The notes under the pieces: model-generated
Database searches by the model: none
The model's input: the letters and a program-made list of their open reading frames with translations, nothing else
What the model was told of the DNA's origin: nothing
Part shown: piece after piece, positions 3,716-62,577 of the stretch
Position numbering within the stretch: position 1 is the first letter of the stretch
Layout: each line of letters starts with the position of its first letter
NCBI GenBank assembly: GCA_944319935.1
Contig: CALUFM010000006.1
Location: forward strand, 1 to 64,000
DNA length: 64,000 bases
Reading direction: 5' to 3'
DNA from: an uncultured Prevotella sp.
Lineage (GTDB): Bacteria > Bacteroidota > Bacteroidia > Bacteroidales > Bacteroidaceae
Made by a program: the position numbers and the translations under genes

Positions 3716-3805
3716 TTGCGAAAGGCCGTCTTTTACAGTGCGAAAGGCGGCCTTCCGCTTTATGAAATACGGCCTTTCGCAAAGCGGTTTGCCGCCTTTC
3801 ACTGC
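3716..3805. repeat. GC-rich 22-base-period palindrome cluster, copy 1
   Basis: Four units of about 22 bases built on gcgaaaggccgtctttt and its complement (ggcctttcgc). Neighbouring units are mutually complementary, so several hairpins can form. It lies 3' of korB, after the terminator. Confidence 0.7.
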
Positions 3806-10743: not shown

Positions 10744-10910
10744 GAGGAGTTAAAGAAGTTAAGGTAGTTAAAGGAGTTAAAGACAAATGCTTCTTAAATG
10801 AAAAACGAATAATCAAGCGAGGATACGATTGTTCTCTTTTCAATTTGGTATTTCATTAGAAAATGCATTTGTCTTTAACTCCTTTAACTACCTTAACTCC
10901 TTTAACTACT
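10744..10910. repeat. Inverted repeat B, gttaaagga units
   Basis: Left arm 10744-10792 (gttaaagaa, gttaaggta, gttaaagga, gttaaagac, then aaatgc); right arm 10862-10910 is its near-exact complement. A loop of about 70 bases has no open frame. It lies just upstream of radC and downstream of the glycosyltransferase gene. Confidence 0.85.
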
Positions 10911-11960: not shown

Positions 11961-12137
11961 TAGTTAAAGGAGTCAAGGTAGTCAAAGGAACAAAAGACGC
12001 ATGCCGGGTCTTTAATGCCAGAGTAATTAAAGAAGTCAAGGAAGCCGAAGGAGTTAAAGACGCATGCTTTGGTGTTACGTAAAACGGTGAAAGCTATAGT
12101 CTTTAACTCCTTCGGCTCCCTTGACTTCTTTGACTAC
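11961..12137. repeat. Inverted repeat C with an extra unpaired arm
   Basis: Two left-type arms (11961-12004 and 12030-12068) and one right arm (12097-12137). The inner left arm and the right arm share a site-specific variant (gaagccgaagg / ccttcggctcc). The outer left arm lacks it and has no partner. Confidence 0.75.
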
Positions 12138-16070: not shown

Positions 16071-16193
16071 AAGGGAGTTAAGAAGTAAAAGAACAAAGGA
16101 GTTAAGACATGTTAGTATGACGCTTGAAGCACATTATGACATTCCAACAAGGCATTTGCCTTGACTCCATTGCTCCTTTACTTCTTAACTATT
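16071..16193. repeat. Inverted repeat D between ddl and the acyltransferase gene
   Basis: Left arm 16071-16111 (gttaagaagtaaaagaac, aaaggagttaagac); right arm 16151-16193 is the imperfect complement. The loop is about 40 bases. The right arm ends 17 bases before the next start codon, so it would form in the leader of that gene. Confidence 0.75.
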
Positions 16194-27843: not shown

Positions 27844-27985
27844 GTAGTTAAAGGAGTTAAGGCAGTTAAAGGAGTTAAAGACAAATGCCTTGTCGCTTTC
27901 AACTACACAGCCGACACACGCATATAACACGATATAAGGCATTTGTCTTTAACTCCTTTAACTGCCTTAACTCCTTTAACTACCT
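27844..27985. repeat. Inverted repeat F, gttaaagga units
   Basis: Left arm 27844-27891 and right arm 27936-27985 are complementary over about 45 bases (gttaaagga, gttaaggca, gttaaagga, gttaaagac, aaatgcctt). The loop of about 44 bases shows no reading frame. It sits between two co-directional genes; the right arm ends 15 bases before the next ATG. Confidence 0.85.
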
Positions 27986-27999
27986 TAAAACAGACAACT

Positions 28000-28767
28000 A
28001 TGCACAAGAACATCTACATACTGTCCGACGCCCACTTGGGCTCATGGGCCATCGACCACGCACGCACGCAGGAACGCCGCTTGGTGCGATTCCTTGACGA
28101 CATCAAGACAAAGGCGGCGGCGGTGTACCTCCTTGGCGACATGTTCGACTTCTGGTACGAATACAAGTACGTCGTGCCCAAGGGCTACACGCGCTTCCTC
28201 GGCAAGCTTTCCGAACTGACGGACATGGGCGTTGAGGTGCATTTCTTCACCGGCAACCACGACATCTGGGCGTATGACTACCTCGAAAAGGAGTGCGGCG
28301 TCATACTGCACACCAAGCCGATAACCACCGAAATCTACGGCAAAATATTCTACTTGGCTCATGGCGACGGCCTCGGCGACCACGACCCGAAGTTCAACTT
28401 CATACGCCGCATGTTCCACAACCGTGCGTGCCAGCGGATGTTCAGCGCGCTGCACCCCCGCTGGGGCGTGTGGTTCGGCCTGACATGGGCTAAGCACAGC
28501 CGCCTGAAACGCGCCGACGGGAAGGAACCTCCATACCAGGGCGAGGACAAGGAAGCCCTCGTGCGCTACACCAAGCAGTACATGAAGACCCACCCGGACA
28601 TCGACTACTTCATCTACGGGCACCGCCACATAGAACTTGACCTCATGCTCTCGCGCAAGACGCGGATGATGATTATCGGTGACTGGATATGGCAGTTCAC
28701 CTACGTTGTGTACGACGGCCAGCACCTGTTCCTCGAAGAATATGTAGAAGGGGAAAGCAAACTATAA
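28000..28767 (+). CDS. UDP-2,3-diacylglucosamine diphosphatase-like metallophosphoesterase
   Basis: 255 residues from ATG 28000 (MHKNIYILSDAHLG); the longer open frame reads through the repeat. Calcineurin-type motifs are complete: SDAHLG, GDMFDFWYE, TGNHD, LAHGDGLGDHD and YGHRH. The length and FDFWYE fit the LpxH branch, which releases UMP to give lipid X in lipid A synthesis at the inner membrane. Bacteroidota are known to carry LpxH-type enzymes, so this is probable; other phosphoesterases of the family remain possible. Confidence 0.82.
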   Translation: MHKNIYILSDAHLGSWAIDHARTQERRLVRFLDDIKTKAAAVYLLGDMFDFWYEYKYVVPKGYTRFLGKLSELTDMGVEVHFFTGNHDIWAYDYLEKECGVILHTKPITTEIYGKIFYLAHGDGLGDHDPKFNFIRRMFHNRACQRMFSALHPRWGVWFGLTWAKHSRLKRADGKEPPYQGEDKEALVRYTKQYMKTHPDIDYFIYGHRHIELDLMLSRKTRMMIIGDWIWQFTYVVYDGQHLFLEEYVEGESKL

Positions 28768-28769
28768 GA

Positions 28770-28880
28770 AAAGGTGTGAAGGTGAGAAAGTGAGAAGGTG
28801 AGAAAGCGCAAGCGTTTCATAATAAACAATGAACGCGGCTGCGCTTTCTCACCTTCTCACTTTCTCACCTTCACACCTTA
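28770..28880. repeat. Inverted repeat G, gtgagaaa units
   Basis: Left arm 28770-28812 (gtgtgaag, gtgagaaa, gtgagaag, gtgagaaa, gcgcaag) and right arm 28838-28880, exact complements over about 40 bases. The loop is about 25 bases. It lies between convergent genes, 3 bases from the ackA stop. Confidence 0.85.
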
Positions 28881-28882
28881 AA

Positions 28883-30076
28883 TCATAGCAGGTTCATCGT
28901 GTCGGTGGCAATCATCAGCTCCTCGTCTGTCGGTATTACGCACACCGTAACTTTCGAGTCTGGAGTTGATATGACCGCTTCCTCGCCGCGGATGGTCTTG
29001 TTCTTCTCGACGTCAAGCTTCACTCCCATGTACTCCAAGCCTGTGCAAGCAGCCTCACGGGTAGAGCATTGGTTCTCACCTACACCAGCAGTGAACACTA
29101 TGATGTCACATCCGCCCATGGCGGCGGCGTAAGCTCCGATGTACTTCTTTATGCGGTAGTTGTACATGTCGAGGGCGAGCTTGGCGCGCTCGTTGCCGTG
29201 TTCGATGGCGTCTTCTATCTCACGCATGTCTGACGAGATGCCGGTTATGCCGAGTACGCCGCTCTTCTTGTTGAGAAGGTTTGACATTCCGTCGGCGTCG
29301 AGACCGAGTTTCTTCTCGATGAAGGTTATCGCTCCGCCGTCGATGTCGCCGCTACGGGTGCCCATCATCAGGCCCTCAAGCGGCGTGAGGCCCATTGACG
29401 TGTCAACACACTTGCCGTTCTGCACGGCGGCGATGCTGGCTCCGTTGCCTATGTGGCAGGTGATGATTTTCTTGTCCTCCATCTTCACGCCGAGATAATC
29501 GCACACACGCTGCGACACATAGCGGTGACTTGTGCCGTGGAAGCCGTAGCGGCGCACTCCGTATTGCTCGTAAAGGTCATACGGTATGGCGTAAAGGTAA
29601 GAGTGGGCGGGCATAGTCTGGTGGAAAGCCGTGTCGAAAACGCCCACCTGCGGGAGTCCGGGCATGAGTTCGCTGACGGCCTGCACGCCCTTGAGGTTGG
29701 CCGGGTTGTGCAGCGGAGCAAGGTCGATGCACTCCTCAAAGGTCTTGAGGACCTCGTCGGTCAGCACCACGCTCTTATTGAACTTCTCGCCTCCGTGAAC
29801 CATGCGGTGGCCTACGGCGTCGATTTCGTCAAGGCTCTTAATCACCCCGATTTCAGGGTCGGTGAGCAGGGAGAAGATGAACTTCACGCCCTCCGTGTGT
29901 TCAGGGATGTCGTGCATCACCTTTTTCTTCGTGCCGTCTGGCATCTTCACCTTCACAAACGCTTCGTCAAGACCTACGCGCTCTGCGCCGCCTGACGTCA
30001 TGACAGACTTGTCGTCCATGTTGTAAAGCGCGTATTTGATGGACGAACTGCCGCAATTCAATACTAATATTTTCAT
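28883..30076 (-). CDS. ackA: Acetate kinase
   Basis: Converts acetyl phosphate and ADP to acetate and ATP, the last step of acetate fermentation. 397 residues, standard. Signatures: ILVLNCGSSSIKYALYN at the N-terminus, GHRMVHGGEKFNKSV, VFDTAFHQTMP, GFHGTSHRYVS, and GNGASIAAVQNGKCVDTSMG. The C-terminal FTAGVGENQCSTR completes the ASKHA fold. Partner pta is upstream in the same direction, with a four-helix-bundle gene and an inverted repeat interposed. Confidence 0.97.
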   Translation of the reverse strand: MKILVLNCGSSSIKYALYNMDDKSVMTSGGAERVGLDEAFVKVKMPDGTKKKVMHDIPEHTEGVKFIFSLLTDPEIGVIKSLDEIDAVGHRMVHGGEKFNKSVVLTDEVLKTFEECIDLAPLHNPANLKGVQAVSELMPGLPQVGVFDTAFHQTMPAHSYLYAIPYDLYEQYGVRRYGFHGTSHRYVSQRVCDYLGVKMEDKKIITCHIGNGASIAAVQNGKCVDTSMGLTPLEGLMMGTRSGDIDGGAITFIEKKLGLDADGMSNLLNKKSGVLGITGISSDMREIEDAIEHGNERAKLALDMYNYRIKKYIGAYAAAMGGCDIIVFTAGVGENQCSTREAACTGLEYMGVKLDVEKNKTIRGEEAVISTPDSKVTVCVIPTDEELMIATDTMNLL

Positions 30077-30091
30077 TGGATGTTATTTTTT

Positions 30092-30569
30092 AGGAGTTAA
30101 AGGAGTTAATGAAGTCAAAGGAGTTAAAGACAAATGCCTTACAAACTATCTGTTGGGTGTGTGTTATTGACCACACCCCTACAATACGCATTCAGGAACT
30201 TACTTGCCTCCTCAAGACTTGAATAAAGAGTATTGTAAGTTTCCAAGTTGACATATCCAAGGTCTTTAGACAAATGGACATAACACCGGCACTCCTCCAA
30301 GCTGCCTTGCGCAATATTGAAAAAGCGCAGCTTGTCAGCCTTGCTGATTTTCTTGTAGCCCTCAGCGATATTGGCAGGAACGGACACTGCGGCACGTTGG
30401 AACTGTGAACACAGGCCAAAACGCTCACTCTCAGGGAACGCCTCGGTAGCCTTATACGTCGCCAAAGCAAACTTATAAGCTTTCTGCCAAGCTATTATGT
30501 CCTCAAAACGAACTGTCATCAAGACATTTGTCTTTAACTCCTTATAACTTCCTTAACTTCTTTAACTAC
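30092..30569. repeat. Inverted repeat H enclosing the four-helix-bundle gene
   Basis: Left arm 30092-30140 (gttaaagga, gttaatgaa, gtcaaagga, gttaaagac, aaatgcctt) and right arm 30520-30569 are complementary over about 47 bases with scattered mismatches. Everything between them (30141-30519) is one gene, whose stop codon touches the left arm and whose start codon touches the right arm. The other members of the family have short non-coding loops. Confidence 0.88.
30139..30519 (-). CDS. S23-type four-helix-bundle protein inside an inverted repeat
   Basis: 126 residues from ATG 30519 (MTVRFEDIIAWQKAYKF); a TTG one codon earlier is disregarded. Family markers: WQKAYKFALATYKATEAFPESE cited in part as WQKAYKFALATYKATEAFP, FGLCSQFQRAAVSVPANIAE, RFFNIAQGSLEECRCYVHLS and LEEASKFLNAYCRG. 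These match the four-helix-bundle family (23S rRNA intervening-sequence proteins), a basic fold thought to bind nucleic acid; a distant member (Avd) assists retroelement reverse transcriptases. No reverse transcriptase is nearby. The gene splits pta from ackA and is transcribed in the same direction. Its precise fit in the loop of inverted repeat H suggests that gene and repeat travelled together. Confidence 0.88.
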   Translation of the reverse strand: MTVRFEDIIAWQKAYKFALATYKATEAFPESERFGLCSQFQRAAVSVPANIAEGYKKISKADKLRFFNIAQGSLEECRCYVHLSKDLGYVNLETYNTLYSSLEEASKFLNAYCRGVVNNTHPTDSL

Positions 30570-30583
30570 AGATAAGATTCAAC

Positions 30584-31594
30584 TTACTTCTTCGCATCCA
30601 TCGCCTGGCAGGCGGTGATTGCAACCAACTTGTAGATGTCATCGACAGAGCAGCCGCGGCTGAGGTCGTTTACCGGGCGGGCGATGCCCTGCAGGATGGG
30701 GCCTATGGCGTCAGCCCCGCCGAGACGCTGGACCATCTTGTATGAGATGTTGCCCACCTCAAGGCAGGGGAACACAAGCACGTTGGCCTTGCCGGCGATG
30801 TCGCTTCCGGGAGCCTTCTTCGCCCCAACTTCGGGCACGAGGGCCGCGTCGGCCTGCATCTCGCCGTCAATCTTCAACGCCGGGTCAAGCTCCTTGGCCA
30901 GCTTCGTGGCCTCGACAACCTTGTCAACTACTTCGTGTGACGCGCTGCCCTTGGTCGAGAAGCTGAGCATGGCTACGCGCGGGTCGGCAAATCCGGCCAC
31001 CGATTTCGCGGTCTTAGCCGTGCATACGGCTATCTGCGCCAACTGTCCTGCGTCGGGAACGGGCGTCACAGCCACGTCGCCTACTACGAGGACGCCGTTC
31101 TCCCCATACTGGGGCTGCTTGGTGATGAGCAGCATCGCGCCGCTGACGCAAGTGATGCCGGGCTCGCACTTGATGATTTGCAGGGCCGGGCGAAGCGTCT
31201 CGGCCGTTGTACTCAACGCGCCTGAAATCTGTCCGTCCGCGCCTCCAGTCTTGATTATCATGCATCCGAGGTAGAGCGGGTCCTTGACAAGTTCGCGGGC
31301 CTGCTCTATGGTCATGCCCTTCTTCTTGCGCAGCTCAGCCAGCAGGGCGGCGTATTCCTCGCTCTTGGGATTGTTCTCCGGGTCGATGATGGTAGCCTTT
31401 CCGATGTTCTTCAGGCCCCATTTTTCGGCGAGAGAGCCGATTTCGGCCGGGTTGCCGATAAGGATTATGTCGGCCACCTCGTCGGCCAGCACCATGTCGG
31501 CCGCCCTCAACGTGCGCTCCTCAGTGGCCTCGGGGAGTACGATGCGCTGCTTGTTGCTCTTAGCGCGCTCAACGATTTGTTGTACTAAATCCAT
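30584..31594 (-). CDS. pta: Phosphate acetyltransferase
   Basis: Transfers acetyl from acetyl-CoA to phosphate, feeding acetate kinase. 336 residues, the short single-domain form. Signatures: RIVLPEATEERTLRAADMVL, GGADGQISGALSTTAETLRP, VSGAMLLITKQPQYGENGVL and GKANVLVFPCLEVGNISYKM, with the end NDLSRGCSVDDIY. A TAATTTTG -7 box lies on the minus strand at 31643-31650. It is the first gene of the pta-(S23)-ackA unit. Confidence 0.96.
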   Translation of the reverse strand: MDLVQQIVERAKSNKQRIVLPEATEERTLRAADMVLADEVADIILIGNPAEIGSLAEKWGLKNIGKATIIDPENNPKSEEYAALLAELRKKKGMTIEQARELVKDPLYLGCMIIKTGGADGQISGALSTTAETLRPALQIIKCEPGITCVSGAMLLITKQPQYGENGVLVVGDVAVTPVPDAGQLAQIAVCTAKTAKSVAGFADPRVAMLSFSTKGSASHEVVDKVVEATKLAKELDPALKIDGEMQADAALVPEVGAKKAPGSDIAGKANVLVFPCLEVGNISYKMVQRLGGADAIGPILQGIARPVNDLSRGCSVDDIYKLVAITACQAMDAKK

Positions 31595-38780: not shown

Positions 38781-38876
38781 GAAAAGTAAAAAGGTGAAAA
38801 AGTAAAAAGATGAAAAGCCGTTCGGGCAGCGTCAATCAGGTTTCACCTTTTTACTTTTTCACCTTTTCACCTTTAC
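38781..38876. repeat. Inverted repeat K, gtaaaaag/gtgaaaaa units
   Basis: Left arm 38781-38816 and right arm 38840-38876, complementary over about 35 bases with a loop of about 24. The right arm runs to the stop codon of the CoA-transferase gene. Units are close to those of repeats A and G. Confidence 0.8.
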
Positions 38877-51049: not shown

Positions 51050-51141
51050 CGGCGAAAGGCGGCCTTTTGGCCTGCAAAAGACCGTCTTTCACAAGCCGAA
51101 ATGCCGCCTTTCGCAAGGCAAGAAGCCGCCTTTTGCAAACG
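51050..51141. repeat. GC-rich 22-base-period palindrome cluster, copy 9
   Basis: Units gcgaaaggcggccttttgg, gcaaaagaccgtctttcac, gaaatgccgcctttcgc and agaagccgccttttgc between susD and the GH32 gene, in the middle of the presumed operon. Confidence 0.7.
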
Positions 51142-53015: not shown

Positions 53016-53016
53016 G

Positions 53017-53127
53017 GTCATACGGTTGTACGGCCATGCGGTTTTACGGTTTCACCGGAAACAGGCGGACTGACAACCGCACAACCATAAAACCGCAAGA
53101 CCGTACAACCCCATAACCGCAAAACCA
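53017..53127. repeat. Inverted repeat M, cggttgtac/gtacaaccg units
   Basis: Left arm 53017-53052 (catacggtt, gtacggcc, atgcggtt, ttacggtt) and right arm 53075-53127 (accgcacaacc, ataaaaccgc, aagaccgtacaacc, ccgcaaaaccat). The arm units match those of repeat J and of 1-52. It separates the GH32 and transporter genes and ends at the transporter start codon. Confidence 0.75.
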
Positions 53128-60445: not shown

Positions 60446-60583
60446 GAAGGAGGGAAATAGTAAAAGGACAAACAGAAATGCCAGACAATACACATCAGCT
60501 TATAGTGTACGACCGCCATGCCTTACAGGGCAGTCACAACCGCCAAGGCGTTTTCACTTGTTCTTTTGCTCTTTCCCTCCTTA
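60446..60583. repeat. Inverted repeat P, ggagggaaa/agtaaaag units
   Basis: Left arm 60446-60473 (gaaggagggaaatagtaaaa) and right arm 60557-60583 (cttgttcttttgctctttcc, ctcctt); a further right-type tract (acttcttttcccttgttctt) extends to 60606. Loop about 83 bases. Between the first and second FKBP genes. Confidence 0.6.
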
Positions 60584-61482: not shown

Positions 61483-61524
61483 TGTCGTTATTTGTTTTTT
61501 GTTAATCTTCAACTTTTACAAATC

Positions 61525-61659
61525 AGGAGTTAAAGTAGTTAGAGTAGTTAAAGTAGTTAAAGACAAATGCCTTGCCATTTGCATGTCCAAAAAACATTGA
61601 TAAAGCCACAAGGCCATTGTCTTTAACTACTCTAACTACCCTAACTACTTTAACTACTG
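61525..61659. repeat. Inverted repeat Q, gttaaagta units
   Basis: Left arm 61525-61572 (gttaaagta, gttagagta, gttaaagta, gttaaagac, aaatgcctt) and right arm 61609-61659 (aaggccattgtctttaacta, ctctaactaccctaactact). The site-specific gttagagta of the left arm is matched by tactctaac in the right arm. Confidence 0.82.
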
Positions 61660-61666
61660 AAAAATT

Positions 61667-62392: not shown

Positions 62393-62577
62393 TAAGGAGT
62401 TAAAGAAGTTATCGCTCGCTGCGCTCGCTGAGAAGTTAAAGACAATAGTCCTGCTTCAAGACCGCAGCCACACAGCCAAAACAGGTCATGACCTGACCAA
62501 TATCGAACAACGGAGCATTTGTCTTTAACTTCTCAGCGAGCGCAGCGAGCGATAACTTCTTTAACTCCTTTAACTTC
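62393..62577. repeat. Inverted repeat R, with a palindromic insert in both arms
   Basis: Left arm 62393-62447 (gttaaagaagttatc, gctcgctgcgctcgctgag, aagttaaagac) and right arm 62514-62577. The gctcgctgcgctcgctgag insert is present, exactly complementary, in both arms. Loop about 66 bases. It occupies the gap before the sirtuin gene; a TAATTTTG box at 62368-62375 just before the left arm may be the sirtuin promoter. Confidence 0.85.

What the first reader, a model, noticed from the sequence alone, without database searches (positions are those of the whole stretch)
30092..30569. Four-helix-bundle gene packaged exactly inside a long inverted repeat between pta and ackA
Seen: the arms (about 47 bases, tandem gttaaagga-type units) end at the stop codon on one side and at the start codon on the other, so the loop is the gene and nothing else. 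Known: S23/four-helix-bundle proteins are encoded in intervening sequences of 23S rRNA (Leptospira, Coxiella), which are also bounded by complementary arms and are cut out by RNase III. Inference: this may be the complete, gene-bearing form of an RNA- or DNA-level mobile element inserted in an operon, and the many gene-less inverted repeats in the window may be its non-autonomous relatives.
Basis: partly seen in the sequence, partly recalled or inferred. Interest (0 to 1): 0.9.

Follow-up and report, generated by a model that had tools for sequence, protein, structure and literature searches.

The report
Mobile ring-protein gene between matched repeat arms
A small gene for a ring-forming protein sits exactly between two mirror-image repeat arms, and comparison across bacteria shows that this arm-gene-arm unit inserts as one piece between other genes while gene-less copies are scattered through the genome, which points to an undescribed kind of bacterial mobile element.

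Summary
In detail: a 126-aa S23/four-helix-bundle gene (30139-30519, minus strand) lies between complementary 47-nt tandem-unit arms in the pta-ackA gap. It is not local. In genus relatives 49/55 S23 genes, 18/19 divergent S23 genes and 40/49 GxxExxY nuclease genes have matched arms. Ordinary genes with arms: 36/907, 11 of them S23, RAYT or DUF559 genes. Arms occur on S23 genes across bacterial phyla. Each locus has its own arm sequence, matched left to right. Gene-less hairpins in the window share unit type and polarity with S23 arms; several are cleanly absent in a close relative, and one site holds an S23 gene in another. Five cyanobacterial plasmid sites exist with and without arm-S23-arm; two have 5-bp repeats at the ends. 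S23 arms most often carry five AG cores 7 nt apart, and S23 is a homopentamer. I conclude that S23 genes form a mobile DNA element with MITE-like derivatives, lacking any known recombinase. The binding model (one ring subunit per repeat) and the transposition chemistry are inferred. The rRNA-IVS/RNase III analogy is not supported by the wobble test. I found no earlier description in the searchable literature.

The parts
30139..30519 (-). S23 / four-helix-bundle gene (PF05635, TIGR02436), 126 aa, between pta and ackA
   Evidence: dN/dS 0.04 against the G052 orthologue, dS saturated
30521..30567 (+). upstream arm (5' arm in the gene's sense)
30095..30140 (+). downstream arm (3' arm in the gene's sense), overlapping the stop codon by 2 nt
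28883..30076 (-). ackA (host gene, context)
30584..31594 (-). pta (host gene, context)
10745..10910 (.). gene-less hairpin, AGTTAAAG type; orthologous site in G052 holds an S23 gene with different arms
12023..12137 (.). gene-less hairpin; complete hairpin not found in the G077 stretch compared
16076..16190 (.). gene-less hairpin; a longer hairpin of related type at the G077 site
27844..27983 (.). gene-less hairpin, 48-nt perfect arms; empty in G064, other hairpin type in G052
28762..28888 (.). gene-less hairpin, GGTGAGAAA units, same type as the arms of S23 gene L005
35345..35501 (.). gene-less hairpin, GAAGTTAAAGAA type
38782..38874 (.). gene-less hairpin, AAAAGTAAAAAGGTGAAA type
53016..53118 (.). 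gene-less hairpin, GGTTTTACGG type, like the arms of S23 genes L012 and L017
54375..54456 (.). gene-less hairpin, GACAAGCAGACAAG type, like the arms of S23 gene L001
56769..56948 (.). gene-less hairpin, AGTTAAAG type, absent in G064
60447..60582 (.). gene-less hairpin, absent in G064
61523..61660 (.). gene-less hairpin, AGTTAAAG type, absent in G064
62394..62570 (.). gene-less hairpin, 52-nt perfect arms interrupted by a CGCTCGCTGCGCTCGCT insert; empty site in G064

Best explanation
The unit arm-S23-arm is a small mobile DNA element. Its ends are inverted arrays of short tandem units; its only gene encodes the ring-forming S23 protein. It inserts as one piece into intergenic gaps, usually directly behind an upstream stop codon and in the sense of the host operon, so it can be expressed by read-through and the neighbours stay intact. 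Gene-less hairpins with the same arms are non-autonomous (MITE/REPIN-like) derivatives. SHOWN: matched arms far beyond chance; presence/absence of the whole unit at five plasmid sites; hairpins present or absent at orthologous sites; co-variation of arms with S23 protein similarity. INFERRED: the S23 pentamer binds one arm by contacting one AG-containing unit per subunit (five units, 7 nt apart), brings the two ends together as single-stranded or cruciform DNA, and host replication or repair enzymes do the cutting and joining. That arm matching is kept at the DNA level is inferred from a negative wobble test.
For: Arms: score >=16 in 49/55 S23, 18/19 S23b and 40/49 GxxExxY loci in the genus; 0 to 0.4% of shuffles and 1 to 15% of mispaired flanks; 12/29 S23 across Bacteroidota-phylum genomes, mispaired 1.0%; 46/76 across bacteria, mispaired 1.5%. 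Ordinary ORFs: 36/907, 11 of them S23, RAYT or DUF559. Filled/empty sites on plasmids: insert of 428 bp with GTAAT at both ends, flanks 96-100% identical; insert of 417 bp with TTCTA at both ends (read by eye in the printed junction); three more sites. Genus sites: empty, gene-less hairpin, S23 and GxxExxY states at pta-ackA; hairpins absent in G064; S23 at a site that is gene-less in the window. Arm polarity AGTT:AACT 35:0 among hairpins classifiable by that motif. AG cores per arm: most frequent number 5 (40 of 108 arms), shuffles 2; S23 is a homopentamer (PMC4990558 citing Lin et al. 2006; two solved S23 entries have five chains). Protein identity versus arm similarity at non-orthologous loci, Spearman 0.30. 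No sense G:U bias in arm mismatches.
Against: No transposition was observed; filled/empty pairs could in part be precise losses. Direct repeats at the insert ends were seen at two of five plasmid sites. No nuclease or recombinase is encoded. Gene-less hairpin number does not follow S23 number (G007 has 11 S23 matches but few hairpins). The extra constancy of AG positions between arms is partly definitional (other phased dinucleotides also score high). Arm tests used mostly the best-scoring S23 hits, and loci share ancestry. Sense orientation (46/53 in S23) could reflect an RNA step; antisense cases exist (8/65 pan-bacterial).
Confidence: 0.64

Rival explanations
1. RNA-level element like the 23S rRNA IVS: the arms pair in the transcript, RNase III cuts the stem, and the element spreads through an RNA intermediate.
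For: Same protein family and same bordering complementary arms as IVS (PMC4990558). Strong sense orientation with both neighbours: 46/53 S23, 18/19 S23b, antisense to both 0, against 152/339 and 43/339 for ordinary genes.
Against: Arm mismatches are not enriched for sense G:U (95) over A:C (124). No RVT_1 match in this 99.8% complete genome. Antisense insertions exist in 8/65 pan-bacterial cases. Gene-less hairpins lie in co-directional, convergent and divergent gaps about as the genome average.
Confidence: 0.13
2. The hairpins are ordinary host features (regulatory or replication-slippage palindromes) and S23 genes merely land in or are captured by them.
For: Hairpin sites are hot spots occupied by different hairpin types in different species. 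Arms differ from locus to locus, as template-switch palindromes would.
Against: Whole arm-gene-arm units are present or absent at plasmid sites. Closely related S23 proteins at unrelated loci carry similar arms. Unit period and copy number depend on the gene family: pan-bacterial S23 7 nt x 4.6, GxxExxY 9 nt x 2.8.
Confidence: 0.13
3. S23 binds only the upstream arm in its own mRNA (TRAP-like autoregulation); the element is a self-limiting regulator and the downstream arm is secondary.
For: Five AG cores 7 nt apart, a pentameric ring, and the upstream arm lies close to the start codon in many loci. The TRAP comparison is from my own knowledge.
Against: A matched downstream arm is the rule, and gene-less hairpins have two arms. 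In mRNA the downstream arm shows the complement, not the AG core.
Confidence: 0.05
4. The element is non-autonomous and moved in trans by a host transposase such as a RAYT.
For: The genome holds one Y1 transposase inside its own inverted arms.
Against: The RAYT arms (CGAAGAGGTCGAA...) differ from the S23 arms. Arm type follows the S23 protein, and S23 looks conserved by selection (dN/dS 0.04, dS saturated).
Confidence: 0.05

Closest known systems
RAYT / REPIN system (Bertels and Rainey 2011, PMC3116915)
   Same: Small gene associated with inverted repeats; dispersed gene-less hairpins; intergenic location; spread inferred from genomics.
   Different: RAYT is a Y1 (HUH) transposase; S23 has no known catalytic activity. 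REPs are short conserved palindromes; S23 arms are tandem arrays whose sequence differs from element to element.
23S rRNA intervening sequences (IVS) with S23 ORF, e.g. Coxiella (PMC4990558)
   Same: S23 ORF bounded by complementary arms; regarded as a selfish element; sporadic distribution.
   Different: IVS lie in rRNA helices and are cut out by RNase III. Here the element lies in protein operons and plasmids, and mismatches give no sign of RNA-pair selection.
BrickBuilt MITE of Porphyromonas gingivalis (PMC4596501)
   Same: Intergenic MITE containing a minisatellite in a Bacteroidota genome.
   Different: 23-nt unit repeated inside the element, small inverted-repeat ends, no S23 gene mentioned in the abstract; here the tandem units are the inverted ends.
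Avd protein of diversity-generating retroelements
   Same: Related protein family; the window protein gives a sub-cut-off Avd match (39.5 bits, cut-off 80).
   Different: No reverse transcriptase in the genome, no DGR.
TAACTGA heptamer repeats of Beggiatoaceae, cyanobacteria and Bacteroidetes (PMC4679880) and cyanobacterial STRRs
   Same: Intergenic heptamer tandem repeats of unknown spread mechanism in overlapping phyla.
   Different: Described as direct repeats; whether they are S23 arms was not tested here.

Membership tests
23S rRNA IVS | located in an rRNA gene | tested here: not met
   lies between pta and ackA
23S rRNA IVS | encodes S23 protein | tested here: met
   PF05635 128 bits
23S rRNA IVS | bordered by complementary arms | tested here: met
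23S rRNA IVS | excised from RNA by RNase III | not testable with these tools
   no RNA data; the indirect wobble test is negative
RAYT/REPIN | Y1/HUH transposase encoded | tested here: not met
   only PF05635 and sub-cut-off bAvd match the gene
RAYT/REPIN | dispersed gene-less hairpins sharing the arms | tested here: met
IS element / MITE | recombinase or transposase gene in the autonomous copy | tested here: not met
   the arm-to-arm unit holds only the S23 gene
IS element / MITE | terminal inverted repeats | tested here: met
IS element / MITE | target-site duplication | tested here: inconclusive
   GTAAT and TTCTA direct repeats at two of five plasmid sites; not clear at the others
DGR / retroelement | reverse transcriptase in the genome | tested here: not met
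   no RVT_1 match in G000
BrickBuilt-type MITE | 23-nt internal tandem unit | tested here: not met
   units are mostly 7-10 nt and form the ends

The most novel reading that the evidence does not exclude
A pan-bacterial class of mobile DNA in which a non-recombinase, ring-forming four-helix-bundle protein reads its own ends by a numerical code (five short units per arm, one per subunit of the pentamer), with sister classes using PD-(D/E)XK-type proteins (GxxExxY with about three 9-nt units; DUF559 with CCTCACCCCC-type arms), and in which these elements are a main source of intergenic minisatellite hairpins in bacterial genomes.
Probability: 0.4. Interest if true: 0.96.

Novelty: categorically new. 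Interest (0 to 1): 0.9.

Why it matters
S23/four-helix-bundle genes are abundant and have no known role outside rRNA insertions. If they are the proteins of a mobile element with MITE-like derivatives, this gives that family a testable function, offers a possible source for part of the intergenic heptamer and minisatellite repeats whose spread is described as unexplained, and adds a mobile element without a known recombinase. The five-unit/pentamer match is directly testable by binding assays.

Tried and rejected
Hairpin density versus S23 number across genomes: no clear proportionality. Reverse transcriptase partner: none in the genome. Host RAYT as mover: its arms differ. Sense-strand wobble test for RNA pairing: negative. 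Interior AG-core constancy between arms: significant, but other phased dinucleotides also score high, so weak. Rfam: nothing reaches a gathering score at 27-33 kb. Literature searches for S23 genes with inverted arms outside rRNA, GxxExxY, DUF559 with palindromes, and heptanucleotide repeats gave no description in the searchable library; this library lacks most subscription papers. The automatic junction alignments for sites D and E, and one of the two for site C, were poor, and these sites were read by eye from the printed sequence.

Full report
OBSERVATION. The window carries ackA (28883-30076, -) and pta (30584-31594, -) with a 126-aa S23 gene (30139-30519, -) between them. Pfam 23S_rRNA_IVP 128 bits, NCBIfam four helix bundle protein 118 bits; the Avd equivalog stays below its cut-off. 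The two arms align over 47 columns with score 33; 100 dinucleotide shuffles give at most 11.5. One arm overlaps the stop codon by 2 nt and the other ends 1 nt before the start codon.

OWN GENOME. G000 has five S23 genes over the Pfam cut-off and a sixth, longer S23-type gene with a four-helix suffix domain. The five have complementary arms, each pair with a different unit, and the sixth has arms too. In about 446 kb, after masking small hairpins, the long-loop inverted repeats that hold an S23-sized gene are those of S23 genes and of one Y1 transposase, whose arms are of a different, REP-like type; the other long-loop pairs either hold no clear gene, lie within coding sequence, or pair one S23 arm with a further arm beyond the next gene. 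No reverse transcriptase was found.

GENUS. In relatives (the genus looks like Prevotella; that name is my recall, not a tool result), 49/55 S23, 18/19 weaker-scoring S23 (S23b) and 40/49 GxxExxY (PF13366) loci have an inverted repeat of score 16 or more in the 300-bp flanks. Dinucleotide shuffles reach this in 0, 0 and 0.4%; flanks mispaired between genomes in 5.6, 15.4 and 1.1%. Of 907 ordinary ORFs 36 pass, and eight of these are S23-type, two Y1 transposases and one DUF559. DUF559 loci in the genus: 20/29, with a shared arm type that raises the mispaired rate to 18%.

BREADTH. Across the phylum 12/29 S23 loci pass (mispaired 1.0%). Across named genomes from many phyla (Clostridia, Planctomycetota, Acidobacteriota, Proteobacteria, candidate phyla, a cyanobacterium) 46/76 pass (mispaired 1.5%), and 62/76 exceed the highest of 40 shuffles.

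THE pta-ackA SITE. In the 30 genomes read the gap is 6-38 bp in most, a short gene-less hairpin of this type in two (L096, L109), an S23 element in L093-L095, L100, L102 and L104, and a GxxExxY gene inside its own arms in L105 and L106; a few have other hairpins. The arms of L093, L094 and L095 differ between species but match within each.

GENE-LESS HAIRPINS. In the own genome the hairpins that can be classified by AGTT/AACT all have the polarity of S23 arms (35:0). Compared with G064, window hairpins at 27844, 56769, 60447, 61523 and 62394 are missing from short intergenic gaps. The hairpin site at 10745 holds an S23b gene with another arm type in G052, and 42861 has another hairpin type in G064. 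Gene-less hairpins are found in co-directional, convergent and divergent gaps in about the genome's proportions. Hairpin number does not follow S23 number across genomes.

BOUNDARIES. On cyanobacterial plasmids the same site was found with and without the element. Trichormus variabilis ATCC 29413 and Scytonema NIES-4073 are filled; Microchaete, Nostoc linckia, N. carneum and Tolypothrix are empty, with flanks 96-100% identical in the two pairs aligned. The insert is 428 bp, GTAAT stands at both ends, and it sits at the upstream stop codon. Nostoc C052 keeps the 5' arm and a truncated S23 start at the same site. A second site (Nostoc ATCC 53789) has a 417-bp insert; TTCTA stands at both ends when the printed junction is read by eye. 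Three more sites (Calothrix, Aulosira, Nostoc C052_D) show the same difference in state with less tidy ends. Insertion and precise loss cannot be separated for each case, but the unit that comes and goes is arm-gene-arm.

ARM CODE. Pan-bacterial S23 arms have 7-nt units, median 4.6 copies; GxxExxY arms have mostly 9-nt units, median 2.8 copies. The number of AG cores in register in S23 arms is most often five (40 of 108 arms), against two in shuffles, and the CT complement does not show it. S23 from Xanthomonas is a homopentameric ring (PMC4990558 citing Lin et al. 2006), and the two S23 entries found in the PDB have five chains. I infer one unit per subunit, by analogy with TRAP (own knowledge). 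The higher constancy of AG positions between arms is weak evidence, since other phased dinucleotides also score high.

ELEMENT OR PASSIVE HAIRPIN. At loci with unrelated flanks, arm similarity rises with S23 protein identity (Spearman 0.30, 2158 pairs; similarity 0.5 or more in 27% of pairs at 70% identity or above and in none below 60%). Arms therefore tend to go with the protein. The pairs are not independent, so the P value is not meaningful.

DNA OR RNA. Arm mismatches are 95 sense G:U against 124 A:C, no sign of selection for RNA pairing. S23 genes in the genus are in sense with both neighbours in 46/53 and never antisense to both, against 152/339 and 43/339 for ordinary genes; antisense cases occur elsewhere (8/65). 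The short arm-to-ATG distance in many loci leaves little room for a promoter, so read-through expression and selection could explain the bias; an RNA step is not excluded.

VERDICT. A mobile arm-S23-arm DNA element with gene-less derivatives is well supported; who cuts and joins, and the ring-binding model, are inferred. It lacks the recombinase that defines RAYT, IS and retroelements and is not in rRNA, so it is filed under none of these, though it works like RAYT/REPIN. The choice of 'categorically new' rather than 'new variant' rests on that and on a literature search limited to open-licence papers.

Noticed in passing
L123-L152, L193-L212; L105, L106 at pta-ackA: GxxExxY (PF13366, PD-(D/E)XK) genes also lie inside complementary arms, with about three 9-nt units (CACGGATTA-like).
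   Followed up: partly
L330-L359: DUF559 (PF04480) genes lie inside CCTCACCCCCAACCCCTCTCC-type arms; some DUF559 domains appear inside long open frames of other genes (for example L349, which looks like leucyl-tRNA synthetase; L335, L338, L358).
   Followed up: partly
G000 C32:7456-8025 (L006, L051): Sixth S23-type gene, with four-helix suffix domain, flanked by arms of AAATAGGCCTGATGAGCC-type units.
   Followed up: partly
G000 C6:150896-151348 (L092): Y1 (RAYT-like) transposase flanked by inverted CGAAGAGGTCGAA-type repeats.
   Followed up: partly
window 62394-62570; L003 arms: Some arms have units interrupted by a CGCTCGCTGCGCTCGCT-type insert that is present in both arms.
   Followed up: no
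window 3716-3782, 51052-51136: Separate family of short palindromes (GCGAAAGGCGGCCTTTTG type).
   Followed up: no
L369 (Dolichospermum UHCC 0315A), between cas6 and cas4: A GTAGGTTGGGTT-type hairpin occupies the gap where Anabaena sp. 90 (L362) has an S23 element with a very long 5' arm.
   Followed up: partly
PMC4679880: TAACTGA heptamer repeats and XisH/XisI genes share a phylogenetic distribution; possible link to armed elements, not tested.
   Followed up: no
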